Of a stretch of DNA of 64,000 nt, positions 27,626 to 63,124 are shown piece by piece (position 1 is the first letter of the stretch; the number at the start of each line of letters is the position of its first letter). The DNA is from Clostridium sp. (lineage in GTDB: Bacteria; Bacillota; Clostridia; Clostridiales; Clostridiaceae), in contig NZ_JAENWM010000003.1 in NCBI RefSeq assembly GCF_016650035.1, forward strand, positions 1 through 64,000. The letters are read 5' to 3'. The translations under genes and the position numbers were made by a program. The notes below the pieces were generated by a model. The model was not told the origin of the DNA, searched no databases, and was given only the letters and a program-made list of their open reading frames with translations.

Positions 27626-27698
27626 GAACAGATAGCTTAACTAAAGCATTTTCCTATAAGATTATAAGATATGGGTTAAACTCCCATTCTGTTCACCA
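27626..27698 (+). ncRNA. tRNA-like element ending in CCA
   Basis: GAACAGA pairs with TCTGTTC, followed by discriminator A and an encoded CCA. ATGGG-TTAAACT-CCCAT forms a T-arm and GCTT/AAGC a D-stem with an unusually short loop. No 5-bp anticodon stem with a 7-base loop can be drawn, and the conserved D-loop GG and T-loop TTC are absent. Possibly a degenerate tRNA or a tRNA mimic. Confidence 0.4.
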
Positions 27699-27744: not shown

Positions 27745-27820
27745 GGGGATATAGCTCAGTAGGTAGAGCAATTGGCTGTTAACCAATAGGTCAAAGGTTC
27801 AAACCCTTTTATCTCCGCCA
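27745..27820 (+). tRNA. tRNA-Asn (anticodon GTT), CCA encoded
   Basis: A complete 76-nt cloverleaf: acceptor GGGGATA/TATCTCC with one G-T wobble, D-arm TAGCTCAGTAGGTAGAGCA, anticodon arm ATTGG-CTGTTAA-CCAAT with GTT, T-arm AAAGG-TTCAAAC-CCTTT, discriminator G and CCA. It reads AAC and AAT codons, which are very frequent in this genome. Lies between small non-coding blocks and a long 10-bp stem (AGAGAGAATA/TATTCTCTCT, about 27926-27974). Confidence 0.95.
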
Positions 27821-38165: not shown

Positions 38166-39014
38166 ATGGATTGTAAAGGTGGTATTTATAAAATATTAAA
38201 TCTAGTCAATGGTAAGATGTATGTAGGAAGTTCTATTAATCTAAAAAAAAGAAAAGAAAAACATTTTAGTCAGCTTAAGAATAACCGTCATTCTAATCGC
38301 CATCTTCAAAGTGCTTATAACAAAGATGGAAAAGAAAATTTTAAATGGATTATTTTAGAAGATGTGATTGACAATTCAACAATACTATCCAGAGAGCAAT
38401 ATTGGATTGATTTTTATGGTAGTTCTAATTGTGAGGTGGGTTATAATTTAGCACCTATAGCCGGAAATTGCTTAGGAGTTAAATATTCAGATGAAATAAA
38501 GCAGAGAATGAGCATAAATCATAAGGCATTAAATTTAGTTGGTGAAAAAAGTTCAAAATTTGGAACTCATCCCTCAAAGGAAACACTAAAATTAATGAGT
38601 GAATCTAATAGTGGAGAAAAATCTTACAAAGCTTTATTAACAAATGATCAAGTAAAAGAAATCAAAAGAATGATAATGGCTGGATTTGATAATATTGAAA
38701 TAGGAAAAAAATATGGAGTTAGTAAAGAATTTGTAAGTGCAATAAAAAACGGAGCCAGTTGGAAAAATGTTAATGTAGAAGGAATCAGCAGAGATGATTT
38801 AAGAAACAAAAATAATAGAAATCAAGTTGGAGAAAATAATCATAATTCAAAACTTACGAAAGAAGATGTTATACAAATAAAAATCATGTTAAAAGAAGGA
38901 TTAATCTATAAAGAAATAGCATCTGTATTTAATGTTAGTACAGGTATAGTCGGCTTGATAAAACGTGAAGGAATCTATAAAGATATCCTTATTCCTGACA
39001 TCAGTGTGGCTTAA
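38166..39014 (+). CDS. GIY-YIG homing endonuclease, 282 aa
   Basis: GIYKILN and MYVGSS at residues 6-22 give the GIY-YIG pair, with Arg in KKRKEKHF and Glu in LSREQYWIDFY. A NUMOD-like KETLKLMSESNSG segment follows. Two HTH-like repeats close the protein (TNDQVKEIKRMIMAGFDN and LTKEDVIQIKIMLKEGLIYK). It interrupts the run of connector genes. The HTH repeats likely bind the homing site. Confidence 0.88.
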   Translation: MDCKGGIYKILNLVNGKMYVGSSINLKKRKEKHFSQLKNNRHSNRHLQSAYNKDGKENFKWIILEDVIDNSTILSREQYWIDFYGSSNCEVGYNLAPIAGNCLGVKYSDEIKQRMSINHKALNLVGEKSSKFGTHPSKETLKLMSESNSGEKSYKALLTNDQVKEIKRMIMAGFDNIEIGKKYGVSKEFVSAIKNGASWKNVNVEGISRDDLRNKNNRNQVGENNHNSKLTKEDVIQIKIMLKEGLIYKEIASVFNVSTGIVGLIKREGIYKDILIPDISVA

Positions 39015-41541: not shown

Positions 41542-43029
41542 ATGAGTTTAATAAGTAAAACTGTAATGGTTAAATGGAATGGAGCTAATAAGAAATATTA
41601 TATATCTAAAGGTTATATATGTAATGACTGGAACGAAGAGTTTGAGGTAAAAGTAGAAGATTTATCTAAAGGTAGTAATTCTTACATTAATGTAAAATGT
41701 GATGGAATAAATTGTAAAACACCACTTAAACCTATAAAGTGGATGGATTATAATAAAAATGTAAAATTGGATGGTAAATATTATTGTCAAAAATGTGCCA
41801 TGAGATTATATGGTGGAAAAAGTGTTAGATTAGCTCATTTTACAACAGATAAGTCATTCTATAATTGGTGTATTAAAAATAATCAGCAAGTCTTACTTGA
41901 GAGATGGGATGTTGATAAAAATGAATATAGTCCAAAAGAAGTAAATTGCACTTCTAATGGTTTAAATAGAAAGGGGTACTATTTTAAATGTCTAGAACAC
42001 CCAGAACATATAAGTGAATTAAAAGATATTTCTAGTTTAGTAGGCAAAAAACAAAATAGTATTGACTGCAATCAGTGTAATAAAGTTGGTGTAACAAATC
42101 CTGAACTAACAAAATATTTCGTAGATATAGAAGACACTAAAAAATATTCATTTAGTTCAAAGAAAAAAGTTAAAATGATATGTCAAAATTGTGGTCATAT
42201 CAAAACTATAGCTATTGGAAGTTTATTTTATCAAGGATTTGGATGCCCAAAATGTTCAGATGGTGTAAGTTATAATGAAAAGATAATGTTTAATGTATTA
42301 GAACAATTGGACATAGAATTTAAAGTAGAATTAAGTAAAACTATATTTAGTTGGTGTGATTCTTATAGATATGATTTTTATATTTGTTCTATAAATAGTA
42401 TTTTGGAAGTAAATGGGCTTCAGCATTATGAGCAAACTAACCGTAAAGGTGCTAGAACATTATTAGAAGAACAAAATGATAGATTTAAAGAAGAATTGGC
42501 AAATAAAAATGGGATCGACAATTACATAATAATTGATTGTAGATATAGTCAATTGGAATTTATAAAGAATAACATATTAAAAAGTAGATTAAGTAATTTA
42601 TTTGATTTATCTAATATAGACTGGATACAATGTCATGAATTTGCGTGTAAAAGTTTAGTAAAAATAGCTTGTAATATATGGTGTGATGGTATTAAAAATC
42701 CAGTAGAAATTGGAAGAATATTAAAAATAAGTGAAACTACTGCAAGAACATATTTAAAGCAAGGTAATAAGCTAGAATGGTGTAAATATGATGTCACAGA
42801 ACAAGGAACAAGAAAAGTTATTTGCATAACAACAGGAGTAAAATTTAACAATGTAGTAGAAGGAACAAAAATGTATCATGCAGGTGATTCTCAAATAATT
42901 AAATGTTGTAAGGGAACAGCTAAATCAGCAGGGAGACATCCCTTAACAAATGTTAAACTGGTATGGATGTATTATGAAGACTATCTTAAACAATTAAATA
43001 ATGACACAGTAATTAAAGAAGCTATTTAA
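41542..43029 (+). CDS. Vsr-like homing endonuclease, 495 aa
   Basis: Same family as the genes at 35841 and 55564. N-terminus with Cys-rich zinc modules (CDGINCKTP, YYCQKC), a middle helical region, then a CPKC ribbon and a nuclease-like block (YRYDFYICS, ILEVNGLQHYEQT). It also has a C-terminal HTH-type region (EIGRILKISETTARTYL). It breaks the normal link between tail tube and tail chaperone genes. Role as a mobile nuclease is inferred. Confidence 0.7.
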   Translation: MSLISKTVMVKWNGANKKYYISKGYICNDWNEEFEVKVEDLSKGSNSYINVKCDGINCKTPLKPIKWMDYNKNVKLDGKYYCQKCAMRLYGGKSVRLAHFTTDKSFYNWCIKNNQQVLLERWDVDKNEYSPKEVNCTSNGLNRKGYYFKCLEHPEHISELKDISSLVGKKQNSIDCNQCNKVGVTNPELTKYFVDIEDTKKYSFSSKKKVKMICQNCGHIKTIAIGSLFYQGFGCPKCSDGVSYNEKIMFNVLEQLDIEFKVELSKTIFSWCDSYRYDFYICSINSILEVNGLQHYEQTNRKGARTLLEEQNDRFKEELANKNGIDNYIIIDCRYSQLEFIKNNILKSRLSNLFDLSNIDWIQCHEFACKSLVKIACNIWCDGIKNPVEIGRILKISETTARTYLKQGNKLEWCKYDVTEQGTRKVICITTGVKFNNVVEGTKMYHAGDSQIIKCCKGTAKSAGRHPLTNVKLVWMYYEDYLKQLNNDTVIKEAI

Positions 43030-47015: not shown

Positions 47016-50000
47016 ATGGCAATAAACGGAAATAAATTATTAGGTAGATTAGAAATCGGTTTGGATCTGCTCAAATCTAACGCAACTGAGGCCAACAAAA
47101 TACTAGCATCTATAAGTGTAAAGAAAATGAATCTTAACATCATGGATGAACAAACTAAAACGAAAAATTTAGAAGCTATAAAATTAATTAGAAAACAAAT
47201 AGAAAGTGTAACAAACGTTGGAATCGACACATCGAAAATAAAAGCAAGTATGGATAAGTTAATAACTTCATTTAATGCTGTTAAACTTAATGGTAATACG
47301 GTAAGTGAAACATTTAAAACTAATTCAACACAAGCACAACAATGGGCTAGTGAAAATGTAAAAGCAGCTACTAAAGTAACGGATGCTTATAATAAAGCAC
47401 AACAAAAGTTAAAAGAAACTATGAAAACAACTACTAATAAAACTACAGGGCAACAAGTGACTACTGCTTCTACAAAAATAGTTACAAGCGAATCTAGTGC
47501 AGAATTAAATAAAATAACTTTAGCATATCAGAGGTTAAATCTCGAAAATAAGACAACTGTACAATCGCTTTTAGGTATGGCTACTCAGGTAAAAAAAACT
47601 ACTGAGAGATATGGATTATTAGGGACATCTTTAATATCTGCGAATGCTCAACAATTAAGATATCGTACTGAAGCTGAAAGGCTAACTCAAACTCAAGCTA
47701 GACAAACAGCTACTATTAATGCAGAAGCACAAGCTAGAGTTGTAGCAAACAATAAAATTATAGCATCTAATCAAAAAAGACAGTTGGCTACATTAGCAAT
47801 GTACACAAAAGAAACTTCTGCTCTTTCTAAATATGATAAGATGAGCCGTACATTAGCATCAGCAAGTGGTGAGGCTGGATTAGCTATGTCATCCTCTAGT
47901 AGTGGTACAACAATGTCGGATAGATTTAAGGTAAGTGGAGTATATGCATTAGCAGCACAGTCAATCTTTATGTTAAGAGCATCTATACGTAATTTAATTG
48001 AAACTAACAGAGATTATGAGGCTTCGATGGTGGATTTGGGAAGAGTAATTGGTGACGTTTCTAAGAAGGAATTAGAACTCTTTGGACAAGATTCAATAGA
48101 TAATGCAAAAAAATATGGTTTAGCATTAAATGAAATCCAAGATTCATATACTGCATTAGCTAAAGCAGGTGTAGATAAAGGTAATTTATCATCAATGGTA
48201 AATACTATTGCTTTAGGATTAAATACTTCCAATATAACATCCGGTCAACAAATGGCCGAACTACTAACTACCAGTATGAAACAAATGAACATAGAATTTT
48301 CAGAAAGTGAAAGGCTCTTAGACAGTTGGAATTATTTAGCAGATAAAACAGTTGCAGACACATCGGATTTTGCAGAAGCAATTTCGAAAGCTGGCGCTAC
48401 CAGCGCTAGTATGAATATATCTATCTCAGAATTAAATGGGATGGTAGCAGTTTTAAGTAATACTACGGGAGCCACAGGAACTGAAATAGGTTCAGCATTG
48501 AAGGCGATGGAGTCTCGTTTGCTTAGACCTCAGACATTAAACACGCTCAAGGAATACGGAATAGAAGTGATGGCTGATGAAAATCATTTCAAGAGTTTTG
48601 GAGAAATAATTCAACAAGTTTCAACAACATTAGATAAATTTGGAGAAAATACTGTAGAAAGTACCGATATACTTGAAAATTTAGGTGGAATTATGAGAAA
48701 AAACTGGATAAATTTGTTGTCCAGGGATTATGATCAGGTTGGCATTATGGCACAACAGAGTGCTGTAGAATCAATAGGTTACTCAGCTAAGAAATCAGAA
48801 GCTTCAATGGATACGTTAGATAAAAAAGTACAAGTTTTTAATGCAACAGTAAAAGAAATGTATGTTGGATTAGGTACAGGTGGATTACTCCCTCAATTAA
48901 AAGGCATAACTGAAATTGGAACTGGGATTGTAACATTAGCTGGTAAAGTTTCATCATTCTTATTTATATTGCTAGAAACTACAATAGCGGTTAAGACATT
49001 ATCATTTGGACTTAAAATGGTTACAGGTAGTAATTTAACACAATCTTTAGATAGAATGAATATGTCATTTAGTGCATTTGGCAAAAGTTTTCAAACTCAA
49101 ACAATGGCAACTAGAGCATATAATACTGCGTCAAAATCACTTCAAGCACAAATAATATCTGGTAATATAACCGCTCAAGAATCTGGTGCTATATTAGGTG
49201 TAGTAGGTACAAAATTAGGAGTAGCTACTACTGGAATAGTAACAATGAGTGCAGCCCAAGGAGCTCTAGATACAAGGCTGTTAGCCGGTCAGACACTTCA
49301 AGCATCATTAGATACTCAACTTGCTTCAGGTACTATAACAAGAGCGCAATATAATGCAGAAACATTAATGAGAACATATACAGAAACAGAATTAGCTGCT
49401 CAACTTGCATCTCATACTATAACTGAGGAAGCATATAATTTAGCTTTATTGCAACGTGGTACATTGGAAGCAAGTTTAAATAGACAAATTGTAGCTAAAA
49501 CTTTGACAGAGGCAGAAGCTAAAGTTATTTTAGATACAAAAATTTTATCAACAGAACAATATAATATATTAATGGCAGAACAAACAGCAACAATGGCTAC
49601 TTTATCTGCTACAGAAAAAGGTAAAATAGCTTCCGATCAAGCCTTGAATGCATCTCAAAAATCAGTAGCGGCATCTGCATTACTTATGAATTTAGCTATA
49701 ATGGCTGGAGTTGTTATATTAACAGTTATAGCATCAGCAGTTATGAAATATATACGTTCTCAAAAGGATTTGTCACAGAATATTGAGAGTGCAGTTACTT
49801 CATTAAAAACTGAATCAGATGCAATTAATGACTCACTTAAAGATTACGAGGAACTTGCAAATAAGACTTCGTTAACAACTGAAGAAAAAGAAAAATTATT
49901 AACTGCTACTCAAAATTTAATTAAGACCATTCCAGGAGCATCGGCTGTTATCAATGATGAAACTAAATCCTTCTCAGAACAGACAGAAGAGTTAAAGAAA

Positions 50001-53000
50001 TTATCAGCAGCTAAAAGGTTGATAGCATCAACTGCGGCTATGGAAGATATTGTTGATAAAAATTTTGATAAAGTTAAAGCTAATATCAAAGAGTATCAAG
50101 ATATGATAGATCTTCAAAATAGTCTAGCATCAGGCAAAGGTGCTGATTATCAATCTGCTATAGACAAGTTGACAAAAAATAATAAAGGTGGAACTACAGA
50201 AGATTTTGCTGCAACGGCTGTAATAAATAAAGCAAAAAAAAGTTTAGATGAGTATAAAACTAAATTAGTTGAAGCTCAAGGACAAATAATGGGAATAAAT
50301 GCCGTTTTTAAAGCCCAATATACAAATTTAGCAGAAGGATCAGGTGCACAGGAAACCGAAATAGCATTAATACTCAAACATGCAGATGCCATGTCAGAAA
50401 GTGGTAAGAATTTAGAAGGAATAAAAACTTATGCTTCTAATGCTATATACATGTTAAAAGATTTAGCTGAAGTTGAACCTTATAAAAACTTTTCGACATC
50501 TATGGAAGAGTTTAATAAAAAAACTGAACATACTACCGAAGAGGTAAATGCACAAATTGATAGTTTAGATAATTTCCAAAAAATTGCAAAAACTTTAAAA
50601 TTACCATTAGATGAAATATCTTTCTTTACAGAATTGCTTGCAGAACAAAAAATAGCATTAAAAGAAACAAAAACTTCTTTATCAGATGCAGCGGCACAGG
50701 CAAAACTTTCTGCACAAGAATTAAAAGTCCTAACGGATTCATTTGATACATCTATGGATTCTATAGGTGCATATAATAAACTTATGGATGAATATAACAC
50801 AAATGGACATTTCTCTGCTGAATCTATGAAGGAAATTATTGATAAACATCAAGAGTTAGCTCCATATTTAAGTAATGAACCATTACTTTATCAGAAAATA
50901 TCAGATGCTTTAGAATCTGAAAAGAAAACAGCAGACGAAACTTATATTTCAATGATGATGAATTCCGAAGATTTTTACACTGCTAATATCAAAGGGAACA
51001 CAGTTTTAACAAATGAATTAAATAAAAAATATAAAATAGATCTTGCTAATTTTAAGACACTAGCACAGGCAAAGAGTATAGTAGAACAAAATTTAATTAA
51101 ACAATTAGCAGGAGTATGGGCAAAATATTATCAAGTTCAAGCAGATGGAAGTGCTATATTAAATGCTATTGCTTGGGAAAAAGATAATGGTATTAAATCA
51201 AGTAGACTTTCAGATATGACTGACGAGCAAGCAAAATCCTTTACTGAGGCTCAAAAAAAAGTTCAGATATATAATGATAAAGTTAAAGAAATTGAAGATA
51301 GTTTTAAGAAAATTACGGGAGATTTTATACCTGCCACTTTAGACGACTATGGTAAAAAAATAGATGAAATAACTAAAGGAACAAAAGATTTAACTTCGGC
51401 AAATAAACAAGCTACAAATTCAATTAAAGATTATGAAAATGCAATAAAATCATTAGATAATCAACTTAAATTACTTGGCATTTCTCAATCAAAACTTATA
51501 CCAAATTCTCAAGCATATATTAACTCCCTTAGTAAAGAGGAAACTTTAATTAAAAAGAAAATTGATTTAACTAAACAATCTATTAAAGTTAATGAAGCCA
51601 ATGCTAAGTCAATGTTGAAACTAGAAGGAGCATCAACAAAATCTACTACAAGTCAAACTTCCTCATCTGGAAATTATGGTGGGCAATACGCTGGCGGTAA
51701 GTATAGTAGTCAGATAAATCAAGCTGGTTCAAAATATGGACTAGATCCTAATCTAATTGCAGCAATGATACAAACTGAATCAAGTTTCAATCCTAACGCA
51801 TATAATAAATCTTCTGGAGCAACTGGACTAGGACAATTCTTATCTTCAACAGCAAAAGATGAAGGACTTATTAATAGCTCAGGAGATCATAGAAGAAATG
51901 CAGAAGCTTCAATTGATGCCCTAGCTAAATATCTTGTTAAACGTATATCGTGGGCAGGTGGTGATGTAGAGAAAGGTATTAAAGGTTATGGAGAAGGCAC
52001 ACAAGCTTATCTAAATAAAGTCCTTAGTAATATGCCTAACAGTGGCAGTATTGGTTCTAGCTCTACAGGAGACTCTACTACAGATGGTGGTTCAGATAAA
52101 ATCCTAGCAGAAATTGAATCTCAGAAATCAGCATTAATCGACTTCCAAGAAGAATTAGCACAGTTTACTTATCAGAAACTTAATATTCAACTTGGAATGT
52201 TTGACGATAGAATTACAGCATCTAGTAAAAAAATAGCTATGCTTCAAACTGATGTAGAAATTACTTCCAATCTAGAGAGAGAAGTTATGCTGATGGGAAA
52301 AATACGGGAAGCTCTTATTACAGAAAGAACATTAATATATCAGAAAGGTGATTTTCTAGAAAAGGAAATTGATAGTAGAAAATATAATCTCGCTCAAGTT
52401 GCTGAGATGAAACTTGCCCTACAAGATGTTTTACAAGAAGAGAAGAATATACTAGTAGAAATTAATAATAATCGCGCTGCAATTAAAAGTCTTGCAATAG
52501 AACAAATGACATCACTTCTCAATAGTCAAAGAATCAGTTCAGAAATTGCTCTTAAACAGCAACAAGAGAATGAGAAAAATGCTCTAGCATCTTCCGTTTA
52601 TGGAAATGGTGAGAAACGAACTATAACTGTAAATACAGAAATTGACAAAGAAGAACTGCAAAAGAAATACGATGATTTAGATATAACTGTTGAAGCTGGC
52701 GCAGGTAAAACTGGTACTAATAGAAAAGAAACATTAAAAATGAACGAGGCTGTCCTGGAAAGTAGAATTGCAGAAGACGTAATAAAAGCATATGACAAAG
52801 AAAATGAAAAACAACAGAATGCTATTCAAGATCAGATTGATAGCTTGAATAAAGAAAATGATTTACAAGCAGAAATTGAAACTCGTTTAAAAAATCAAAA
52901 TGACTTAATAGAAAAACAAACTGCATTGCAAGAAGTAAAAGAAAATAAGAATATCCAATCTCTAACAAAGAATCAAGATGGAAGTTTTCAATTTAAATAT

Positions 53001-53933
53001 GTTGCAGATGTAAAAGCAGTTGAATCAGCACAGAAAGCAGTAAATGATCAAGTTGAATCTAATGATAATTGGGAGAAATCTACAGCATTAAAACATCAAA
53101 CTGATTCACTAAATGCACTAAAGAAATCACTAGCAGATCAGAAAACTGCAAAAGATGATGATTATGCTGAACAATTAAGAAAGTTAGAAGATCGTCAATT
53201 AATTGAAACTAATTTAATGAGTCTCCATTATTCCGATATGAATTTACTTGCAGATGAGAGTTTAAAAACATTAGGACAGACATATTCATATAATTGGGAA
53301 CTCATAATAGAACAACTCACAACAGATGTAGCATCTGCTAAGGCATTACAGGATTCATTACAACTGTCACAAGCAAGCGGAACAATAGGCTCTACTGTAA
53401 GAGGTACAACAGGTAGTGGTAACTCAGCCTCTATTACAGTTAATACAGAGATAGATAAGGCATTACTACAGGCAAAATATGGTAGTGGAGTAGATATAAC
53501 TGTATCTAAAGGTGATGGTGAAACTGGACTCAATAGAGCAGCAACATTGTTATTGAATGAGAAGGTATTAGCTAGTCAAGGAGTTGTACCTAAATTTGAA
53601 AGTGGTGGAGAAGTTGGTTCATTTACTGGAAGTAGATTTGCTATGGTAGATACAAAAGAAAGAGTATTATCAGCTACTCAAACTCAGGACTTCGGACAGT
53701 TAGTGACTTATTTACCTAATGCTTTAATGAGTATAGAAAATATTATGGATAAGATAAGTATGAGTAATGTTAATAATACTAGTTCTAAAGGAGATACTTA
53801 TGTTAGTAATACTTATGGAGATTTAAGTTTCCCTAATGCAACAAATCATGTTGAGATTGTACAAGCTTTGGATACAATTAATTTAAGAGCCAAACAGTAT
53901 TCAACAACTAAAACATATGGACTAAACTCGTAA
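47016..53933 (+). CDS. Tape measure protein with lytic transglycosylase domain, 2305 aa
   Basis: The N-terminal 850 residues are helical and Ala/Thr/Gln-rich, the tape repeat region. One hydrophobic segment lies at about 888-912 (AIMAGVVILTVIASAVMKYI). A soluble lytic transglycosylase domain at about 1554-1672 has the catalytic Glu1588 in IQTESSFNP and a GATGLGQFL segment. A duplicated module (TVNTEID...ITV...TG.NR) appears near 1863 and 2136. Tape measures set tail length and open the host wall. Length predicts a long tail. Confidence 0.93.
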   Translation: MAINGNKLLGRLEIGLDLLKSNATEANKILASISVKKMNLNIMDEQTKTKNLEAIKLIRKQIESVTNVGIDTSKIKASMDKLITSFNAVKLNGNTVSETFKTNSTQAQQWASENVKAATKVTDAYNKAQQKLKETMKTTTNKTTGQQVTTASTKIVTSESSAELNKITLAYQRLNLENKTTVQSLLGMATQVKKTTERYGLLGTSLISANAQQLRYRTEAERLTQTQARQTATINAEAQARVVANNKIIASNQKRQLATLAMYTKETSALSKYDKMSRTLASASGEAGLAMSSSSSGTTMSDRFKVSGVYALAAQSIFMLRASIRNLIETNRDYEASMVDLGRVIGDVSKKELELFGQDSIDNAKKYGLALNEIQDSYTALAKAGVDKGNLSSMVNTIALGLNTSNITSGQQMAELLTTSMKQMNIEFSESERLLDSWNYLADKTVADTSDFAEAISKAGATSASMNISISELNGMVAVLSNTTGATGTEIGSALKAMESRLLRPQTLNTLKEYGIEVMADENHFKSFGEIIQQVSTTLDKFGENTVESTDILENLGGIMRKNWINLLSRDYDQVGIMAQQSAVESIGYSAKKSEASMDTLDKKVQVFNATVKEMYVGLGTGGLLPQLKGITEIGTGIVTLAGKVSSFLFILLETTIAVKTLSFGLKMVTGSNLTQSLDRMNMSFSAFGKSFQTQTMATRAYNTASKSLQAQIISGNITAQESGAILGVVGTKLGVATTGIVTMSAAQGALDTRLLAGQTLQASLDTQLASGTITRAQYNAETLMRTYTETELAAQLASHTITEEAYNLALLQRGTLEASLNRQIVAKTLTEAEAKVILDTKILSTEQYNILMAEQTATMATLSATEKGKIASDQALNASQKSVAASALLMNLAIMAGVVILTVIASAVMKYIRSQKDLSQNIESAVTSLKTESDAINDSLKDYEELANKTSLTTEEKEKLLTATQNLIKTIPGASAVINDETKSFSEQTEELKKLSAAKRLIASTAAMEDIVDKNFDKVKANIKEYQDMIDLQNSLASGKGADYQSAIDKLTKNNKGGTTEDFAATAVINKAKKSLDEYKTKLVEAQGQIMGINAVFKAQYTNLAEGSGAQETEIALILKHADAMSESGKNLEGIKTYASNAIYMLKDLAEVEPYKNFSTSMEEFNKKTEHTTEEVNAQIDSLDNFQKIAKTLKLPLDEISFFTELLAEQKIALKETKTSLSDAAAQAKLSAQELKVLTDSFDTSMDSIGAYNKLMDEYNTNGHFSAESMKEIIDKHQELAPYLSNEPLLYQKISDALESEKKTADETYISMMMNSEDFYTANIKGNTVLTNELNKKYKIDLANFKTLAQAKSIVEQNLIKQLAGVWAKYYQVQADGSAILNAIAWEKDNGIKSSRLSDMTDEQAKSFTEAQKKVQIYNDKVKEIEDSFKKITGDFIPATLDDYGKKIDEITKGTKDLTSANKQATNSIKDYENAIKSLDNQLKLLGISQSKLIPNSQAYINSLSKEETLIKKKIDLTKQSIKVNEANAKSMLKLEGASTKSTTSQTSSSGNYGGQYAGGKYSSQINQAGSKYGLDPNLIAAMIQTESSFNPNAYNKSSGATGLGQFLSSTAKDEGLINSSGDHRRNAEASIDALAKYLVKRISWAGGDVEKGIKGYGEGTQAYLNKVLSNMPNSGSIGSSSTGDSTTDGGSDKILAEIESQKSALIDFQEELAQFTYQKLNIQLGMFDDRITASSKKIAMLQTDVEITSNLEREVMLMGKIREALITERTLIYQKGDFLEKEIDSRKYNLAQVAEMKLALQDVLQEEKNILVEINNNRAAIKSLAIEQMTSLLNSQRISSEIALKQQQENEKNALASSVYGNGEKRTITVNTEIDKEELQKKYDDLDITVEAGAGKTGTNRKETLKMNEAVLESRIAEDVIKAYDKENEKQQNAIQDQIDSLNKENDLQAEIETRLKNQNDLIEKQTALQEVKENKNIQSLTKNQDGSFQFKYVADVKAVESAQKAVNDQVESNDNWEKSTALKHQTDSLNALKKSLADQKTAKDDDYAEQLRKLEDRQLIETNLMSLHYSDMNLLADESLKTLGQTYSYNWELIIEQLTTDVASAKALQDSLQLSQASGTIGSTVRGTTGSGNSASITVNTEIDKALLQAKYGSGVDITVSKGDGETGLNRAATLLLNEKVLASQGVVPKFESGGEVGSFTGSRFAMVDTKERVLSATQTQDFGQLVTYLPNALMSIENIMDKISMSNVNNTSSKGDTYVSNTYGDLSFPNATNHVEIVQALDTINLRAKQYSTTKTYGLNS

Positions 53934-55563: not shown

Positions 55564-56694
55564 ATGTTAATAACAAAAACAGTAATCACTAGTTGGAGCA
55601 ATACTAATAAAATATGGTATGAGAGAAAAGGATATATATTCACTAAAATGAGAGAGTGCCTTGAAGTTGATGTAAAAGATTTACCAATCAGTTCAGGTGT
55701 AAAAGTTGAAGTCAAATGTGATTGTCCTGATTGCAAAAGTCCTATTTTAAGCCCTATGAGATGGGTAAGTTATAAAAGGTATATTAAAGAAGATGGGAAA
55801 TATTATTGCAGGAAATGTGCAAGTAAATTATATGGTAATGAGAATATGAGAAAAGTAAAACTAGCAAAAGGCATATCATTTGAACAATGGTGCATTAATA
55901 ATAATAGACAAGATGTTTTAGATAGATGGGATTATGACTTAAATGATAAAAATCCTAATGAGACAGCATGCTCAATAAAAAAGAAATATTATTTTAAATG
56001 TGATAAACATCCTGAACATGAAAGTGAATTAAAAAATTTAAATAGTTTTACTAATGGACTTATAGGGGCTATAAAATGTAATCAATGTAATTCTTTTGCA
56101 CAATGGGGAGCTGATAATATAGATGAAGATTTCTTAGAAAAATATTGGGATTATAATAAGAATGTAGGGATTAAACCATGGGGTATTAGCCATGGATGCC
56201 ATACAAAAGTATTTATAATATGTCAAGAAAATAGCAATCATCTAAGTTATAAAGTTGAATGTAAAAGCTTCTGTGTCGGCAATAGATGCCCTGCGTGTAA
56301 ACAATCAAAAGGAGAAAAAAGAGTTGAAAAATATCTAGTAAATAAAGGGTTTATAAAAGGAGTAGACTATTTATCACAAAAGCCTTTCGATGGATTGTTA
56401 GGATTAGGTGGAGGGAATCTTTCATATGATTTTTATTTGATAAAACATTATAATTTATTGATAGAATATCAAGGAGAATTTCATGACAGACCTATAGATT
56501 TTTATGGGGAAGGTACGAATGTAGCAGAAGATAGATTTGTAAAACAAAAGGAACATGATAGAAGAAAAAAAGAATATGCAGATGATAATAATATAGAATT
56601 ATTACTGATATGGTATTGGGATTTTAATAATATAGAAACTATTTTAAACAAACAATTAAAACAAAATAAGGAGATGGTAATATATGGCATATAA
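55564..56694 (+). CDS. Vsr-like homing endonuclease, 376 aa
   Basis: Third member of the zinc-repeat Vsr-like group: N-terminal Cys modules (CDCPDCKSP, YYCRKC), a middle CNQCN ribbon, CPACKQSKGEKRVEKYL and a nuclease-like block (LSYDFYLIKHYNLLIEYQGEFHD) ending ELLLIWYWDFNNIE. The N-terminal region matches the 41542 protein closely. It splits the tail-tip gene set and overlaps the next gene by 11 bases. Homing role inferred. Confidence 0.72.
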   Translation: MLITKTVITSWSNTNKIWYERKGYIFTKMRECLEVDVKDLPISSGVKVEVKCDCPDCKSPILSPMRWVSYKRYIKEDGKYYCRKCASKLYGNENMRKVKLAKGISFEQWCINNNRQDVLDRWDYDLNDKNPNETACSIKKKYYFKCDKHPEHESELKNLNSFTNGLIGAIKCNQCNSFAQWGADNIDEDFLEKYWDYNKNVGIKPWGISHGCHTKVFIICQENSNHLSYKVECKSFCVGNRCPACKQSKGEKRVEKYLVNKGFIKGVDYLSQKPFDGLLGLGGGNLSYDFYLIKHYNLLIEYQGEFHDRPIDFYGEGTNVAEDRFVKQKEHDRRKKEYADDNNIELLLIWYWDFNNIETILNKQLKQNKEMVIYGI

Positions 56695-58153
56695 TAGGTC
56701 AACTTTTCCCGAACAGATCGACCTTCCAATTGAGCTTTTTGATATTTCACCTACAGATAAACCTGATATAGACGAATATTTTATTTTATGTACTTTGACG
56801 AATCCAACACCTGACCAAATAGATAGAATGGCTTATTTATTAACGGCATATAACAATAAAATATTAAATGCTGAAAAAATAAATTATTTTATGGATATAG
56901 CTATAAACACAGAAAAATTTTGGTTTGACAATGTAAATAACTATTTAAAATTTATAGCTAATTATGATAGTCTTTATCCATACAAAATCTATAACACAGT
57001 AATGGATTTTAATGGTGATTTATATATGAGTTTATCTAGTGACAACATTGGAAATCCTTTATCAGATGCAACTAAATGGAGAAAAATTAGCCAACGTGGT
57101 TTACAAGGTATACAAGGAGAAAGAGGGTTTGCAGGAATGGGACTCGCCTTCATAGGCTCCTATGACTCAACTGCCACATATACAATTAACCAAGGAGTAG
57201 AACAAAATGGAAGTTTATATGGTTGCATCTCACCAATACCTATTACTGGAATATCTCCAAGTAGTAGCACAAATGATTGGAGTATGGTGGTATCTAAAGG
57301 AAGTTCAACTTTTTTAACGGTTCTAAGAGGTTCAGTTATAGTAAATACAAATACTGCTGTTGTTCCAATAGATATTATTGGGTTTAATAAAAATAATGAC
57401 CAAATATTTGTATATACAGATAAAAATTATATAGAACAAGAAAAAGAATATATGTTAAATAGTGATGGATTAAGTATTGTAAAAATGGTTGGAACATGGG
57501 ATGGAACTATAACTCCTGTTAATTTTAATTTTGTAGTATTTAAAAATATTGTAGAAGGAGTCGCTTTGGCAGACGGTAGTTTAATTCAAATTCAAAGTAT
57601 TACATTGGATAAATTAAATTTAGATGTTCAAAATAAAATCGGTAAGATTGGGAATGCCTTTTTACAAACCACTGCACAAGATTTAAGTGGTGCAGTTAAT
57701 GAAAATACCAATAATTTAAAATCACATATAGTTGATTATGTAAAGCACCCTGCTTATATAACTACAACAGGTGTTGCTAATATATATACAGCTACATTAG
57801 ACCCTGCTCCTACAAGTTATGTTGATGGCATGGGAATAACAGCTAAAATAAATGTGAATTCAACTGGGGCATCAACAATGAATATTAATAATCTTGGTGC
57901 AAAAGCGATGAAAGATGGATTTGGAAATTCTATAACTAATTTTAAAGCAAATACGATTTATGGATTTAGATATGAGGCAGTTTCACAATCTCTTATGCTC
58001 CAAGGAGCAAGTGCCCCTGTAAATACATTTTCACAAACTACAGACCCAGCTTTATATGCTAAACCAAATGATATATGGTTTGACTTAGCTAGTGGAACAA
58101 TTAAATATAGAGTAGGAACAGCATGGGTAACATTTGATTACACTTATGCTTAG
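56684..58153 (+). CDS. Tail fibre or receptor-binding protein, 489 aa
   Basis: Residues 140-150 carry a short collagen-like run (GLQGIQGERGFAGMG). The middle is a repetitive beta domain and the C-terminus a YVDGMGITAKINVNSTG-type knob seen in phage fibres. Adjacent to the radical SAM locus. Likely part of the host-binding apparatus. Confidence 0.7.
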   Translation: MAYNRSTFPEQIDLPIELFDISPTDKPDIDEYFILCTLTNPTPDQIDRMAYLLTAYNNKILNAEKINYFMDIAINTEKFWFDNVNNYLKFIANYDSLYPYKIYNTVMDFNGDLYMSLSSDNIGNPLSDATKWRKISQRGLQGIQGERGFAGMGLAFIGSYDSTATYTINQGVEQNGSLYGCISPIPITGISPSSSTNDWSMVVSKGSSTFLTVLRGSVIVNTNTAVVPIDIIGFNKNNDQIFVYTDKNYIEQEKEYMLNSDGLSIVKMVGTWDGTITPVNFNFVVFKNIVEGVALADGSLIQIQSITLDKLNLDVQNKIGKIGNAFLQTTAQDLSGAVNENTNNLKSHIVDYVKHPAYITTTGVANIYTATLDPAPTSYVDGMGITAKINVNSTGASTMNINNLGAKAMKDGFGNSITNFKANTIYGFRYEAVSQSLMLQGASAPVNTFSQTTDPALYAKPNDIWFDLASGTIKYRVGTAWVTFDYTYA

Positions 58154-58169
58154 AAGGGAGAAATAATAT

Positions 58170-61100
58170 ATGATACCAAAAAATAAAATGTATTTAACTT
58201 CACAAGATTTTGGTCAATGGTCGGATTATTTTGGAGAATTAATATCAAGTGATAAAAGATATAATAAGAGTTCATGTGGGGATTGCAATAGTTGTAATTC
58301 CTCATGTTCTACAGAAAGTAATATAAGGACAAAAAATATAACATGGGTAGTTACAGAGGCTTGTAACTTGAATTGCAGTTATTGTTTTAGCGGAGATACA
58401 TTGATCACCATGAAAGACTTTTCTAAACGACAATTAAAGGATATTGAAATAAATGATGAAATTTTAGCTTTTAATGAATTTTCTGAAGGTCAAGGGAAAC
58501 ACAATATCAGCAAAATAGCTAAAGTAGAACAATTACATAATAATTTTTCGGAAACTATTAATATAATATTAGAAGATAATACTATATTAAATGTAACTCC
58601 GAATCACCCTATTTTAGCAAGAAGAAATACCGACAAATCTAAATATGATTATAGAGAGGCTGGTAAATTTAAAGTAGGACAATCCGTGTATACACTTCCT
58701 GATATTAATGAAGAATTTGCAAATATTAATGATATAAATTATCAAATAGGATATTTTGTATCTATGTGGCAAGGTGATGGAAGTTATAAAAAATATATAG
58801 ATAAAAGAGGTTACAAACAATTCAAAATAAGATTAGCGGTAAAAGATGATGAAATAATATCTAGAATGGAAAATATTATGAAAGTTCTTGATATAGATTA
58901 TTATTTATATGATTTTAAAGTGTCTTCTAAATTTAACATAATAAAACCATCTATATTTGCTAATACAGAGAAAGTTTATAATCAAATGATAAAAATAATT
59001 GATGACAATTTTAAAATAAATAAAAGTGTTAATTATTATAAAGGATATTTAGCAGGTATATATGATGCAGAGGGACATATTGATAAAAAGGGTAATACAA
59101 TAAGAATTTGTAACACAGATATTGATATTATAAAAGAAATTGAAGAAGGATTAAAAGTCATTAATATTCCTTATTGTGTAGAACAAGATGGTGTTACAGT
59201 GAATAATAAAATTAAATATAATGTAAGAGTTCTAGCAAATAATCGAGAGAGTTTGAATGTATTAAGATTTATTAAACTAGTATCCCCTTCTGTTCAACGT
59301 AAAGGAATTGAAAACTTTTATAATAAATCTTTATTCCTCAGAAAAAAAATAAAAGAAATATCAGTTGGAGAAACAATAGAAGTATTTAATTTAGGCACGT
59401 CAACTAAAACTTACATTGCAAATAATATCTTAGTCCATAATTGTTATGAAACACATAAAACAGGTAGAAGAATGACTAAAGAAGTTGCAAAACAATCTGT
59501 AGACTTTTTGTTCGATAAACAGAAAATAAATGGATATTATGAATTTGATGACTCTGTAGCAGTTATTCTTGAATTCATTGGTGGCGAACCTCTACTTGAA
59601 ATAGAACTTATTGATTACATTGTTGAGTATTTTAAATTTAAAGCATTTGAAGTAAAAAGTCCTTGGGCAACTAATTATATGATAAGTATGAGTACCAACG
59701 GTGTTTTATTTGAAACAGAAAAAGTACAAAACTTTATTAAAAGAAATTTAGGGCGAGTTAGTATTGGAATAACGATAGATGGTAATAAAGAATTACATGA
59801 TAAATGTAGAGTGTTCCATGACGGAAAAGGTTCTTATGATATAGTTGAAAGTTCTGTAAAAGCATGGTTAAAAATTAATCCCGATTCTCAAACAAAAATA
59901 ACTTTAGCGCCTGAAAATGTTATGTTTTTAAATGATGCTTTGAAGAATGTTTGGAGTTTAGGATTAAAAGGTGCGTTTACAAATTGTGTTTTTGAAGAGG
60001 GTTGGCAGACAAAAGATGCTACTATTTTATATTATCAAATGATTGAATTAGCAGATTATTTATTAGAAGACGAAAATTATTCTAAATATTTTTGTTCATT
60101 ATTTGATGAAACTATAGGACAAGAAGTAACTGAAGATAAAAATTGGTGCTTTAAAGAAGGTACTTTAGTTCTTACGCCTAAAGGTAATGTGAAAATTGAA
60201 GATTTAAAAATTGGGGATATTATAACTACGAATAACTCAATCCAGAATGTCAGCAATATATTTAAAAGAATTAGTAATGATACTGCTACTATTCGTGCAA
60301 CAGGAATATTTGAAACATCTACTACCAAAGAACACCCTTATTTAACTAAACAATTAATAGGCAAGAATAAATATTCAGATTCCAAGTGGGTTAAAGTAAA
60401 AGATATTAAGAAAGGTGATAAAATAGCCAGTCATTGTCATTTATTTGGAGACATAGATGTTGATAATGATATCGCATATATTGTAGGTAGATATATTGGT
60501 GATGGATGGTGTTCAACTACAGGCTATAAATTATGTTGCAGTTATAAAGAATATGAAGAATTAAAACTAGCTATGGACAAAGCACACATAAATTATTCAG
60601 TAGACAATTACAGGACGGTTAAGCAGTTTAATATATTTAAAAATAATACAAAACTTTTGAATATTCTATCTCAAATAGGACATATTGCTTTTGAAAAAAA
60701 TATACCTAGAGAAGCTTTTAATTGGAATAAAGAAAGTGTTGAAAGTTTACTTAAAGGATTGCTAGATGCAGATGGATGTTATAGACAGAAAGAAAATATG
60801 TGGAAGTTTAACACTATAAGCCCAGTTTTAGCCAATGATGTTCTTATTTTATTAAGAGGACTAAACTATTTCCCTACTTGCTATTTATGTAAGAGAGCAG
60901 GGGAAAGTGTTATAGAGGGTAGAACAGTAATAATTAAAGATAGATACGAAGTCTATTTTAATTTAGATAAAAAAAAAACAAGATTTTGTGAGTATGATGA
61001 AGAAAATAACGTAGTTTGGACTCCTGTGAAAGAAGTTAATTTAAATTGTGAACCTTATGAGGTTTTTAATTTAATGGTAGAGAATGAGCACACTTTTATA

Positions 61101-61595
61101 GCAAATGGAAGTATTGTTCATAATTGTGGAGGTAATGGACAAATGCTCGCTATTGCACCTGATGGCAAATGTTTCCCATGTATTAGGTTTATGGGATATG
61201 CTCTAAATGGTAGAGAAGAACAACCTATCGGAGACATTTATAAAGGATTGGATAAAAAGGAAGACAATGAATGGTTGAATGAATTAAGTCAAATTACTAT
61301 GACTTCACAATGTGGTTATGATGACAATAAAAAATGTTTAACTTGTCCTATTGCGAGTGGTTGTGCATTATGTAGTGGTTATAACTATGATAAGTTCGGA
61401 ACTCCAAATCATAAAGCTACTTATATCTGCGAAACACATCAATCTCGTGTAATGGCTAATTACTATTTCTTTAATAGACTTTATAAGAAATTGGGTATAG
61501 AAGATAAATTAGAATTAAATATTTTTAAAGAATGGGCATTGAATATTATAACAGAGAAAGAATATGACGATTTAATTTTCTTAGGAGGTGAATAG
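58170..61595 (+). CDS. Radical SAM/SPASM peptide-modifying enzyme with two inteins, 1141 aa precursor (462 aa spliced)
   Basis: The cluster motif reads CNLNCSY at residues 65-71, with C72 belonging to intein 1. After excision, C425 supplies the third ligand, restoring CNLNCSYCYETHK. Later come the radical SAM landmarks FIGGEP and ISMSTNG. After intein 2 the SPASM region CGGNGQMLAIAPDGKCFPC follows with more Cys (CGYDDNKKCLTCPIASGCALC). These enzymes use SAM radicals to crosslink cysteines in peptide substrates. The adjacent Cys-rich protein is the obvious substrate. N-terminal residues 36-46 are themselves Cys-rich (CGDCNSCNSSC). Substrate and product are inferred. Confidence 0.9.
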   Translation: MIPKNKMYLTSQDFGQWSDYFGELISSDKRYNKSSCGDCNSCNSSCSTESNIRTKNITWVVTEACNLNCSYCFSGDTLITMKDFSKRQLKDIEINDEILAFNEFSEGQGKHNISKIAKVEQLHNNFSETINIILEDNTILNVTPNHPILARRNTDKSKYDYREAGKFKVGQSVYTLPDINEEFANINDINYQIGYFVSMWQGDGSYKKYIDKRGYKQFKIRLAVKDDEIISRMENIMKVLDIDYYLYDFKVSSKFNIIKPSIFANTEKVYNQMIKIIDDNFKINKSVNYYKGYLAGIYDAEGHIDKKGNTIRICNTDIDIIKEIEEGLKVINIPYCVEQDGVTVNNKIKYNVRVLANNRESLNVLRFIKLVSPSVQRKGIENFYNKSLFLRKKIKEISVGETIEVFNLGTSTKTYIANNILVHNCYETHKTGRRMTKEVAKQSVDFLFDKQKINGYYEFDDSVAVILEFIGGEPLLEIELIDYIVEYFKFKAFEVKSPWATNYMISMSTNGVLFETEKVQNFIKRNLGRVSIGITIDGNKELHDKCRVFHDGKGSYDIVESSVKAWLKINPDSQTKITLAPENVMFLNDALKNVWSLGLKGAFTNCVFEEGWQTKDATILYYQMIELADYLLEDENYSKYFCSLFDETIGQEVTEDKNWCFKEGTLVLTPKGNVKIEDLKIGDIITTNNSIQNVSNIFKRISNDTATIRATGIFETSTTKEHPYLTKQLIGKNKYSDSKWVKVKDIKKGDKIASHCHLFGDIDVDNDIAYIVGRYIGDGWCSTTGYKLCCSYKEYEELKLAMDKAHINYSVDNYRTVKQFNIFKNNTKLLNILSQIGHIAFEKNIPREAFNWNKESVESLLKGLLDADGCYRQKENMWKFNTISPVLANDVLILLRGLNYFPTCYLCKRAGESVIEGRTVIIKDRYEVYFNLDKKKTRFCEYDEENNVVWTPVKEVNLNCEPYEVFNLMVENEHTFIANGSIVHNCGGNGQMLAIAPDGKCFPCIRFMGYALNGREEQPIGDIYKGLDKKEDNEWLNELSQITMTSQCGYDDNKKCLTCPIASGCALCSGYNYDKFGTPNHKATYICETHQSRVMANYYFFNRLYKKLGIEDKLELNIFKEWALNIITEKEYDDLIFLGGE
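58383..59441 (+). mobile_element. Intein 1 with LAGLIDADG endonuclease, 353 aa
   Basis: Residues 72-424. Starts CFSGDTLI, has block B TPNHP, endonuclease motifs (MWQGDG and AGIYDAEGH) and ends LVHN followed by Cys425. The insertion lies exactly at the third cysteine of the CX3CX2C cluster motif, so the enzyme is inactive until protein splicing occurs. Confidence 0.92.
60147..61124 (+). mobile_element. Intein 2 with LAGLIDADG endonuclease, 326 aa
   Basis: Residues 660-985. Starts CFKEGTLVL, block B TTKEHP, endonuclease motifs (GRYIGDGW and GLLDADGC), ends SIVHN before Cys986. Insertion is directly before the first SPASM cysteine (CGGNGQM). It again interrupts an iron-sulfur ligand site. Confidence 0.92.
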
Positions 61596-61596
61596 C

Positions 61597-62298
61597 ATGG
61601 CTTGTTCTTTTTGCACTAATACTTGTAGTGAAGGGTGTTCAAATGATTGTGATACATCTTGTTCGGGATATTGTACAGGTACTTGTAGTGCATCTTGTGC
61701 TGATAGTTGCATACTCACATGCTTAGGTTCATGTAGCACTAACTGTGGTGCAATATGTGCTCAGGGTTGTTTGGGTGGATGTGATAGTAGCTGTAGTGGT
61801 GGATGTTGGGGGACATGTCTAGGGGTCTGTCAAGATAACTGTAGTGGAGGTTGTACTGGTAGCTGCAGTGGAGGCTGTAGTGGTAGTTGTAGTGGAAGTT
61901 GTTATACGGGTTGCTATGGTGGTTGTAAGACTGGCTGCTACGGGACTTGCAAAGGTGATTGTAATAACGCTTGTTTATCAGCTGAAAGTTCAACGATCAT
62001 TGCAAATTTAGGTAGTAATATATTAAAAGGAAATAAAGTTAGAGTAAATGATTTTCTAGCTTTAAGAAATGCAATTCACAATGAATTAGTTCGCAGAAGT
62101 AAAACTATACCTGCTGATGTTTATACCGCAACTCCTGTAAAGGGTGGAAAAATACCAAAAGAACATATAGACAAGATATTATTGGATGTTAGAGTTATGG
62201 ATATTGCAAAAGGTACTTTAGCTATTGTCAATCCCACTACATTAACGGGTGTGGCAACCTACATTAAAACATTAATGGCACAAAATATTAAGGCATAA
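61597..62298 (+). CDS. Cys-repeat protein, probable radical SAM substrate, 233 aa
   Basis: The start is the ATG after TTAGGAGGTGAATAGC; a GTG at 61588 lies in that site and is discarded. Residues 1-126 contain 32 Cys: Cys3, Cys6, then one every fourth residue to 126, with small Gly/Ser/Thr spacers. Residues 127-233 have no Cys and look like a folded domain (NDFLALRNAIHNELVRR...). The gene overlaps the enzyme gene end closely (start 2 bases after its stop). Radical SAM maturases of Clostridia act on Cys-rich precursors; here a phage tail-region protein fills that role. A structural tail protein with thioether crosslinks is the leading idea. Confidence 0.85.
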   Translation: MACSFCTNTCSEGCSNDCDTSCSGYCTGTCSASCADSCILTCLGSCSTNCGAICAQGCLGGCDSSCSGGCWGTCLGVCQDNCSGGCTGSCSGGCSGSCSGSCYTGCYGGCKTGCYGTCKGDCNNACLSAESSTIIANLGSNILKGNKVRVNDFLALRNAIHNELVRRSKTIPADVYTATPVKGGKIPKEHIDKILLDVRVMDIAKGTLAIVNPTTLTGVATYIKTLMAQNIKA

Positions 62299-62329: not shown

Positions 62330-62776
62330 ATGGAAAAAGTACAAAAAGATATATTAGTATTAATGTTAAATATAAATTTAAAACTTATAAATAAAGATTC
62401 TACATGTGTAAATGATATTAATAGTTTATTATTAATTGCTATGACAGAAAATGAAAAACAGTTAGCTTATGGTAATTTAGAAAGTAAGTTTTTAGAAATT
62501 GCAGAAAATAATTACCTTTTTATTGAATCAGTTATCTCTAATAGTAATCTAGAGAACAAATTATATTTATTGATGAAATGTAAAGGCAAAAACGTCTTAC
62601 GTAACATATCTCAATATAATTTGGAAGATTATGTTACCCTTGCATTAAATACTATTTATACAGGAATAACTCCTCGGCAAGAATTCGATTTATATCAAAT
62701 GCTCGCAAGGTTAGCTATTATGGAAGGAAGTCCTGAATTAATACAATTAACTATAAACAAAATACAATTATTATAG
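62330..62776 (+). CDS. Hypothetical helical protein, 148 aa
   Basis: Mostly helical, acidic, with LYLLMKCKGKNVLRNISQYN in the middle. It lies in the same operon as the modification locus, with AAGGGGG before the ATG. A chaperone or assembly role is possible. No family recognised. Confidence 0.6.
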   Translation: MEKVQKDILVLMLNINLKLINKDSTCVNDINSLLLIAMTENEKQLAYGNLESKFLEIAENNYLFIESVISNSNLENKLYLLMKCKGKNVLRNISQYNLEDYVTLALNTIYTGITPRQEFDLYQMLARLAIMEGSPELIQLTINKIQLL

Positions 62777-62785
62777 GAGGATATT

Positions 62786-63124
62786 ATGATTAAGGAATTA
62801 AAGGAAAATGAACAAATTTTCATTGAAGATATAAATAATGATTTATGTAATAATATATCTATTTTACAATTTCAATTAGATAGCTATGATAAATTATTTA
62901 CGTCTTATATGAATAATACCAGTGAAATAGCGAATGAATTAAATCTAAAGAAATTTTTAGATATTTATAGTGATACTTGTGCAGAAATGGCTAATATAAA
63001 AATACAACTATTAAAGGATAATTTAAAAGATGAATATCAATATTTTCTAGCAAACAAATGTATGTATGTTCTCGATTATCCAAATAAAACTTTAAAGATA
63101 ATAAAAAATACAATAAAAATTTAA
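62786..63124 (+). CDS. Hypothetical coiled-coil protein, 112 aa
   Basis: Predominantly helical (KELKENEQIFIEDINNDLCN...), basic C-terminus. AGGAGG precedes the ATG. Follows the previous gene by 9 bases. Function unknown. Confidence 0.6.
   Translation: MIKELKENEQIFIEDINNDLCNNISILQFQLDSYDKLFTSYMNNTSEIANELNLKKFLDIYSDTCAEMANIKIQLLKDNLKDEYQYFLANKCMYVLDYPNKTLKIIKNTIKI

What the first reader, a model, noticed from the sequence alone, without database searches (positions are those of the whole stretch)
58170..62298. Phage tail-region radical SAM enzyme paired with a 32-cysteine repeat protein
A radical SAM/SPASM maturase sits directly before a protein with 32 cysteines spaced almost perfectly every four residues, and both lie among tail-fibre and tail-tip genes. 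Known radical SAM systems of this sort make crosslinked peptides in bacteria. Here the likely substrate is a large structural protein with a 107-residue Cys-free domain, suggesting a virion part hardened or shaped by thioether links. I know of no described phage tail protein of this kind.
Basis: partly seen in the sequence, partly recalled or inferred. Interest (0 to 1): 0.95.

Follow-up and report, generated by a model that had tools for sequence, protein, structure and literature searches.

The report
Phage tail cassette for cysteine-repeat cross-linking
Among the tail genes of a phage lies an enzyme gene, interrupted by two predicted self-removing inserts, directly before a gene for a protein with a cysteine at almost every fourth residue over half its length; the same gene set recurs in dozens of other phage sequences, and the enzyme would likely lock the repeats into a stiff, covalently cross-linked part of the virus tail, which is untested but can be checked by mass spectrometry.

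Summary
The 1141-residue ORF is a radical SAM/SPASM maturase of NCBIfam's 'CXXX-repeat target' family, interrupted in frame by two LAGLIDADG inteins (353 and 326 aa) at the third cysteine of CX3CX2C and at a SPASM cysteine. One base behind its stop starts a 233-residue protein with 32 Cys (30 of 31 gaps exactly 4) and a Cys-free, predicted helical domain. A small protein two genes on is remote kin of a third family that accompanies the enzyme in 82 of 87 phage-type relatives and is fused to it in three. In 80 of 87 a Cys-repeat ORF lies on the enzyme's strand (78 within 1.5 kb); 55 of 87 loci show recognised tail genes, 0 of 26 bacterial short-peptide relatives do. Scanning by the target's domain instead found the enzyme in 30 of 34 loci. 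Isolated jumbo phages (SPN3US, phiEaH2) hold a distant version with often unannotated Cys ORFs. Best reading: the enzyme staples the repeats by thioethers into a rigid tail appendage. Chemistry and virion location are inferred. The enzyme and target families already had NCBIfam names; ten searches of an open-licence library listed no paper on a phage-tail form.

The parts
58170..61595 (+). Radical SAM/SPASM maturase precursor (1141 aa; exteins 462 aa) with two inteins
   Evidence: TIGR04115 362.8 bits (cut-off 350) with the inteins in place; PHROG 1802; alignment with relatives
58383..59441 (+). Intein 1 (residues 72-424, 353 aa, LAGLIDADG type); inserted at the third Cys of CX3CX2C
   Evidence: Hint and LAGLIDADG_3; C1, TPNH, LAGIYDAEG, terminal HN, C+1; intein at the same site in L015/L108, 38% identical
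59442..60146 (+). Middle extein (radical SAM core, residues 425-659)
60147..61124 (+). Intein 2 (residues 660-985, 326 aa, LAGLIDADG type); inserted at the first SPASM Cys (CGGNG)
   Evidence: Intein_splicing PF14890 54.1 bits, TIGR01443 31.1 bits; C1, TKEH, LKGLLDADG, terminal HN, C+1
61125..61592 (+). C-terminal extein, SPASM domain
   Evidence: matches TIGR04115 positions 250-359; aligned Cys
61597..62298 (+). Cys-repeat protein (233 aa, 32 Cys), predicted substrate
   Evidence: TIGR04114 20.2 bits (cut-off 20); phrog_6085
61603..61974 (+). (CX3)n repeat region, 124 residues with 32 Cys, 25 Gly, 20 Ser, 12 Thr
61975..62295 (+). Cys-free predicted helical domain, related to an N-terminal domain in other targets
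   Evidence: found only in Cys-run ORFs of the loci held
62330..62776 (+). 148-aa protein of unknown role; possible counterparts of similar length in L006 and L008 (weak)
62786..63124 (+). 112-aa partner protein, remote relative of the CXXX-repeat accessory family TIGR04116
   Evidence: same family fused to the enzyme in L160, L169, L150; model pLDDT 90.7
56684..58153 (+). Tail fibre-like protein directly upstream
   Evidence: phrog_26419, phrog_5073 tail fiber
47016..53933 (+). Tail tape measure protein
   Evidence: phrog_4211 1.2e-31

Best explanation
The window holds, inside a phage tail gene cluster, a cassette of a radical SAM/SPASM maturase gene interrupted by two predicted inteins, a gene for a 233-residue protein with 32 cysteines almost exactly four residues apart, and a gene for a small predicted partner protein, and this enzyme likely ties the cysteines to neighbouring residues by thioether bonds so that the repeat becomes a stiff rod that would form part of the tail tip or fibre. 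SHOWN by calls or sequence: family membership of enzyme and target, two intein insertions at cysteines of the CX3CX2C and SPASM motifs, the gene order, recurrence of the trio in many phage sequences, fusion of the partner family to the enzyme in three, a domain that sits at either end of the repeat and was met only with it. INFERRED: both inteins splice out and restore the [4Fe-4S] sites; the partner and the mobile domain help present the repeat to the enzyme or dock the product on the tail; the enzyme works along the repeat, joining Cys sulphurs to a carbon of a nearby Ser, Thr, Gly, Ala or Asn (Asp/Glu are too rare for the PapB type of link to be the rule); the product is extended, reduction-proof and built into the virion.
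For: Enzyme: TIGR04115 362.8 bits over the 350 cut-off; next is PapB, 142.7, also second for the L006 relative, where the SCIFF maturase is third; nearest solved relative of L006 is 5wgg (that this is the SCIFF maturase CteB is recalled). Target: TIGR04114. Trio: Cys-repeat ORF in 80 of 87 phage-type reps, within 1.5 kb in 78 of 87; partner family in 82 of 87; all three in 77 of 87, among them 56 of the 62 viral-contig reps; partner family fused to the N-terminus of the enzyme in 3 of 126 reps, with no separate copy there. Tail setting: hits to six tail seed families in the held flank in 55 of 87 phage-type loci, 0 of 26 bacterial short-peptide loci; baseplate wedge, tail protein and collar fibre upstream of the enzyme in L006 and L016, with one small ORF (the partner) between; same gene order from tape measure to fibre in window and L012/L013. 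Target-first scan: 34 of 34 domain ORFs have Cys runs of 11 or more, enzyme in 30 of 34. Distant parallel: SPN3US/phiEaH2 Cys ORFs lie between a virion structural protein gene and two radical SAM genes. Repeat make-up: 4106 of 4351 Cys gaps are 3 or 4, slots filled mostly with Gly/Ser/Thr/Asn/Ala.
Against: No chemistry and no virion proteomics was done. The repeat part of the model is unreliable (pLDDT under 50). 32 of 87 phage-type loci gave no hit to my six tail seeds, and 5 of the 39 other loci did (L074, L080, L081, L085, L087; four of them carry phage-type targets and are fragments or low scorers, L087 is a distant outlier). A looser scan of 63 neighbours in the 32 loci showed tail fibres among other things but cannot be tallied per locus. 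Seven of 87 lack a same-strand Cys ORF (L155 has it on the other strand) and five lack the partner, some on short contigs. One 31.8-kb contig has a target but no enzyme. The SPN3US enzyme is far below the TIGR04115 cut-off and no partner gene was found there. Bacterial members of the family act beside short peptides, so a released peptide product is possible in principle.
Confidence: 0.52

Rival explanations
1. The product is not structural: the phage carries a RiPP-like bacteriocin or signal as cargo, released at lysis, and the tail position is incidental.
For: The bacterial short-peptide relatives have targets of 53-193 aa (23 ORFs), several with an RR motif that looks like a Tat signal (my reading), and peptides are what most related maturases are named for.
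Against: 80 of 87 phage-type target ORFs are 183-1072 aa; they sit in tail clusters of more than one tail type; no transporter or peptidase family was reported for the genes scanned beside the window's pair (not every gene was scanned); the Cys-free domain next to the repeat is mostly about 100-115 residues.
Confidence: 0.2
2. The target is a virion protein but the enzyme does something other than thioethers, such as D-residue epimerisation, and the cysteines form disulfides or bind metal.
For: Radical SAM peptide enzymes also epimerise in directional, regular patterns (PMC8326336, passages); a regular CX3 array could ligate metal; for the window several of the next profiles (CcpM, quinohemoprotein, nif11-type) lie close together far under their cut-offs, so profile rank alone does not fix the chemistry.
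Against: PapB is the second-best match for the window and for L006; Cys is the one regular feature of the repeat, no other slot residue exceeds 38% at gap 4.
Confidence: 0.2
3. The intein-bearing enzyme copy is a decaying gene and the Cys protein goes unmodified in this phage.
For: Two inteins in one gene, both at cluster-motif cysteines.
Against: One uninterrupted frame of 1141 aa; both inteins keep C1, TxxH, terminal HN and C+1; of 60 residues invariant in 12 relatives, 54 match in the alignment, five more are the motif residues before intein 1 that the aligner misplaced but that can be read in the sequence, and one differs (L414 is Met).
Confidence: 0.06

Closest known systems
NCBIfam CXXX-repeat system (TIGR04115 maturase, TIGR04114 target repeat, TIGR04116 accessory)
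   Same: Enzyme and target over the curated cut-offs; partner is remote kin of the accessory family
   Different: Phage tail clusters, targets mostly of 183-1072 aa with a mobile helical domain, inteins in some enzymes; the bacterial clade (17 rows, one clade, SH-aLRT 100 in a quick tree) has short peptides and enzymes mostly of about 720 or 405 aa
PapB/freyrasin ranthipeptide maturase (NF047865)
   Same: Radical SAM/SPASM enzyme; second-best NCBIfam match, 142.7 bits
   Different: Below its cut-off of 340; PapB joins Cys to Asp/Glu in CX3D/E motifs (PMC9413430, abstract and passages), while the window's 124-residue repeat has only 6 Asp and 1 Glu for 32 Cys
SCIFF maturase (TIGR03974; solved structure 5wgg, CteB by recall)
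   Same: Nearest solved structure by sequence, E 2.9e-25 for the L006 enzyme
   Different: 86.1 bits against a cut-off of 425; acts on a short peptide (recalled); the window's genome and its relatives carry ~459-aa hits at about 30% identity, which I take for SCIFF maturases (name not tested)
SPN3US/phiEaH2 jumbo-phage radical SAM pair with Cys-repeat ORFs
   Same: Cys-repeat ORFs beside radical SAM genes and virion/tail genes
   Different: Enzymes 125.6 and 121.2 bits against 350; targets 19.6 and 17.1 against 20 (SPN3US); two radical SAM genes; partner family not found
Intein-containing Rv2578c-family radical SAM protein (NF038136)
   Same: Intein within a radical SAM protein; window residues 64-428 match it with 54.6 bits
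   Different: Cut-off 700 not reached; different enzyme; here a second intein lies in the SPASM domain

Membership tests
TIGR04115 CXXX-repeat radical SAM maturase | Score over curated cut-off 350 | tested here: met
   362.8 bits; intein-free L006 414.9, L012 446.5, L016 465.6, L028 415.5, L023 363.1; intein-bearing L185 347.2, just under
TIGR04114 CXXX target repeat | Score over cut-off 20 | tested here: met
   20.2 bits, marginal
TIGR04116 CXXX-repeat accessory protein | Score over cut-off 50 | tested here: not met
   Window protein not reported at E 0.1; 10 of 42 aligned relatives hit it, best 1.3e-29; window scores 22 and 36 bits against profiles built without it: remote kin, not a member
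PapB ranthipeptide maturase NF047865 | Score over cut-off 340 | tested here: not met
   142.7 bits
SCIFF maturase TIGR03974 | Score over cut-off 425 | tested here: not met
   86.1 bits
Radical SAM/SPASM enzyme | CX3CX2C motif and SPASM cysteines once the inteins are out | tested here: met
   Sequence and alignment; splicing itself not tested
Ranthipeptide or sactipeptide | Thioether cross-link from Cys to a carbon | not testable with these tools
   Needs mass spectrometry
Intein | Hint-type profile match, C1, TxxH, terminal HN, nucleophile +1 | tested here: met
   for both inteins; splicing not tested
Virion protein | Present in purified particles | not testable with these tools
   Context only

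The most novel reading that the evidence does not exclude
Many diverse tailed phages, with contractile and other tails, build part of their tail tip from a protein rod stapled at every fourth residue by an enzyme carried in the same cluster: an enzyme-made thioether ladder as a viral structural material. In some phages the enzyme itself must first be freed of inteins that occupy its iron-sulphur ligands.
Probability: 0.4. Interest if true: 0.92.

Novelty: new variant of a known kind. Interest (0 to 1): 0.78.

Why it matters
If true, radical SAM peptide chemistry is used to make virion parts, not only small peptides; it would add a reduction-proof covalent fibre to the ways phages stiffen their tails, give a testable source of thioether-ladder proteins, and explain a gene trio that recurs in dozens of phage contigs. 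The jumbo-phage Cys ORF has no annotated feature at the matched place in 30 of 54 records, and the window's repeat has only two Lys and no Arg, so routine annotation and tryptic proteomics would both tend to miss such proteins.

Tried and rejected

Rows dropped: loci were collapsed at 95% enzyme identity to 126 reps; the 460-bit line between phage-type (87) and the rest (39) is my own cut; 13 of the 39 (L074, L080, L081, L083, L085, L087, L091, L093, L095, L152, L158, L163, L165) are fragments, distant outliers or probable phage-type rows, which leaves the 26 short-peptide rows, picked by hand. Viral scan 2 kept the best 80 of 148 confirmed stretches. The tree used 53 of 87 phage-type, 17 of 26 short-peptide and 3 outgroup rows. 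The structure of the target used 25 sequences, that of the partner 42. The neighbour scan used 63 of 90 selected neighbour ORFs.
Full report
OBSERVATION. The Cys protein more likely starts at ATG 61597, eight bases behind AGGAGG and one base behind the enzyme's stop. Its 32 Cys give 30 gaps of four and one of three. No other ORF of 40 aa or more in the window has a Cys run of six.

THE ENZYME HAS TWO INTEINS. Pfam finds Hint, LAGLIDADG_3, Intein_splicing and Radical_SAM in one frame. Aligned with 24 relatives, 19 of them uninterrupted, the window shows inserts of 353 aa (residues 72-424) and 326 aa (660-985). Insert 1 takes the place of the third Cys of CNLNCSY|C; insert 2 that of the Cys of the SPASM CGGNG. 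Both keep C1, TxxH, a LAGLIDADG motif, terminal His-Asn and a Cys at +1. The exteins add up to 462 aa. Of 60 residues invariant in 12 relatives, one differs in the window (54 match in the alignment; five motif residues were misplaced by the aligner but are readable in the sequence). Among 87 phage-type reps, at least 8 carry 9 inteins, at four places: second motif Cys (L022, L025, L167, L147, L161), third motif Cys (window, L108), the CGG SPASM Cys (window), and a later SPASM Cys (L078). L185, met later and outside that count, has one at the third Cys. That these Cys are cluster ligands rests on established knowledge of SPASM enzymes, not on a structure made here.

FAMILY. With the inteins in place the enzyme still passes TIGR04115 (362.8 against 350), followed by PapB (142.7) and others far under their cut-offs. 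All 12 members of an alignment of relatives match TIGR04115 at 1e-20 or better. The target passes TIGR04114 by 0.2 bits.

RECURRENCE. Scans of viral contigs and of one genome per species gave loci that collapse to 126 reps. Of these 87 (62 viral, 24 genome, the window) score 460 bits or more against a profile of phage-type enzymes. A Cys-repeat ORF on the enzyme's strand is in 80 of 87, within 1.5 kb in 78 of 87. Cys-run ORFs are 87 in 327,101 bp next to the enzyme and 9 in 947,587 bp elsewhere or on the other strand. A reverse scan, by the target's domain, gave 34 loci: in all 34 the domain ORF is Cys-repeat, in 30 the enzyme is near; the four misses are L183, L187, L188 (contigs of 5-7 kb) and L199 (31.8-kb record, none). 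Only 10 of the 34 are contigs that the enzyme scans had not listed; of these 6 have the enzyme.

TARGET ANATOMY. Of the 80 phage-type targets, 47 have a stretch of about 90 or more residues before the main Cys run and little after it, 20 the reverse, 13 are other (the sorting is by length, and some of these N-terminal stretches themselves hold Cys). The two domain types align with each other (hhalign 96.5% for all rows; 97.7% for 5 and 26 rows chosen by a motif they share; 0.1-0.3% for three control comparisons) and were found in no ORF without a Cys run of 8 (94 and 55 hits). AlphaFold2 gives four helices there, block pLDDT 49-79; the repeat is under 50 and says nothing. Gaps of 3 or 4 make 4106 of 4351. 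Of ten targets scanned against Pfam, a database relative carries choline-binding repeats and a viral target a glycine-rich domain; six had no match. This fits, but does not show, a surface-binding role.

THIRD COMPONENT. A small protein, in the window 62786-63124, has relatives in 82 of 87 phage-type and 31 of 39 other loci, 75 of the phage-type ones as ORFs under 160 aa. Ten of 42 relatives hit TIGR04116, the CXXX-repeat accessory family; the window's copy does not, but scores 22 and 36 bits against profiles built without it and its close kin, where the neighbouring 148-aa protein scores 2 and -1. In L160, L169 and L150 the same domain is fused to the N-terminus of the enzyme and no separate copy was found. 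This ties partner and enzyme together. Its model is confident (pLDDT 90.7) but has no convincing match among solved structures.

SETTING. The window's contig encodes terminase, portal, tape measure, tail fibre, tail protein and endolysin. With six seed families, tail genes lie in 55 of 87 phage-type loci (39 of 62 viral, 15 of 24 genome loci, and the window) and in 5 of the 39 others; none of the 26 bacterial short-peptide loci is among these five. In L006 and L016 baseplate wedge, tail protein and collar fibre stand upstream, with only the partner gene between them and the enzyme. Named phages: SPN3US and phiEaH2 have two Cys-repeat ORFs each, near two radical SAM genes; the first of the SPN3US ORFs matches 54 records over its first 57 residues, 30 of them without an annotated feature there. 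Their enzymes are not members (125.6 and 121.2 bits). Two genes upstream of the SPN3US Cys ORFs lies SPN3US_0168 (5.2 kb); PMC5105663 (passages only) calls gp168 a tail protein, like a phiKZ protein at the baseplate periphery, and PMC5694885 (passage) gives gp168 as 5.2 kb, so I take them to be the same.

RELATION TO BACTERIAL SYSTEMS. Seventeen short-peptide enzymes form one clade (SH-aLRT 100, quick tree); phage-type as one clade is not rejected (p-AU 0.90), so the direction of transfer is open. In 60 genomes, the window's own and 59 relatives, the middle extein finds only one match at 44% besides itself; the other hits are 24-40% identical over parts, so the gene is not a common gene of the host's genus.

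MECHANISM. Splicing frees the enzyme; the partner and the target's domain guide it; it links Cys to nearby residues along the repeat; the stiff product is built into the tail. Every step after gene content is inferred. Cys-Asp/Glu links as in PapB (PMC9413430, abstract and passages) cannot be the rule with 6 Asp and 1 Glu for 32 Cys.

LITERATURE. Ten searches of an open-licence library listed no paper on a CXXX-repeat maturase, its accession, or radical SAM-modified phage tails; for only 15 of 49 and 20 of 108 papers were listed. One listed paper on another jumbo phage (PMC8541153, listing only) mentions radical SAM once, and a marine virus survey counts viral radical SAM genes (PMC5332604, passages). 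Subscription journals are mostly missing there; I recall, without having seen it here, that the bacterial families come from in-silico work on radical SAM systems.

Noticed in passing
window 55564-56694, 35841-36863, 38166-39014, 41542-43029; L029:10254-11399: Four free-standing homing-endonuclease-like genes (one between two tail genes upstream of the cassette; in L012 the counterparts of these tail genes are adjacent without it), plus a similar-looking ORF downstream in L029, besides the two inteins: a phage loaded with homing elements.
   Followed up: partly
window 25514-25621 and 26311-26426 (+): Two matches to the Rfam 'skipping-rope' RNA family above its gathering score.
   Followed up: no
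window 27626-27695 and 27745-27820 (+): Two tRNA genes (one only by Rfam) just before the packaging genes.
   Followed up: no
L195/L204 (viral record, 51,247 bp): The same maturase (391.9 bits) with six TAG codons inside its frame: a phage that may read TAG as a residue carries the system.
   Followed up: partly
P0101: A Cys-repeat protein followed by a Hint/intein-like domain that runs to the end of the 288-aa sequence: targets too may carry inteins.
   Followed up: no
L052, L140, L171, L161, L129: Some loci have two maturase-like ORFs or several Cys-repeat ORFs (up to six in L161), suggesting families of such proteins.
   Followed up: no
L172:5992-6799 (SPN3US) and L173:6018-6811 (phiEaH2): Two Cys-repeat ORFs in each phage; in the SPN3US record the first is unannotated and the second is overlapped by a gene called in another frame.
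   Followed up: yes
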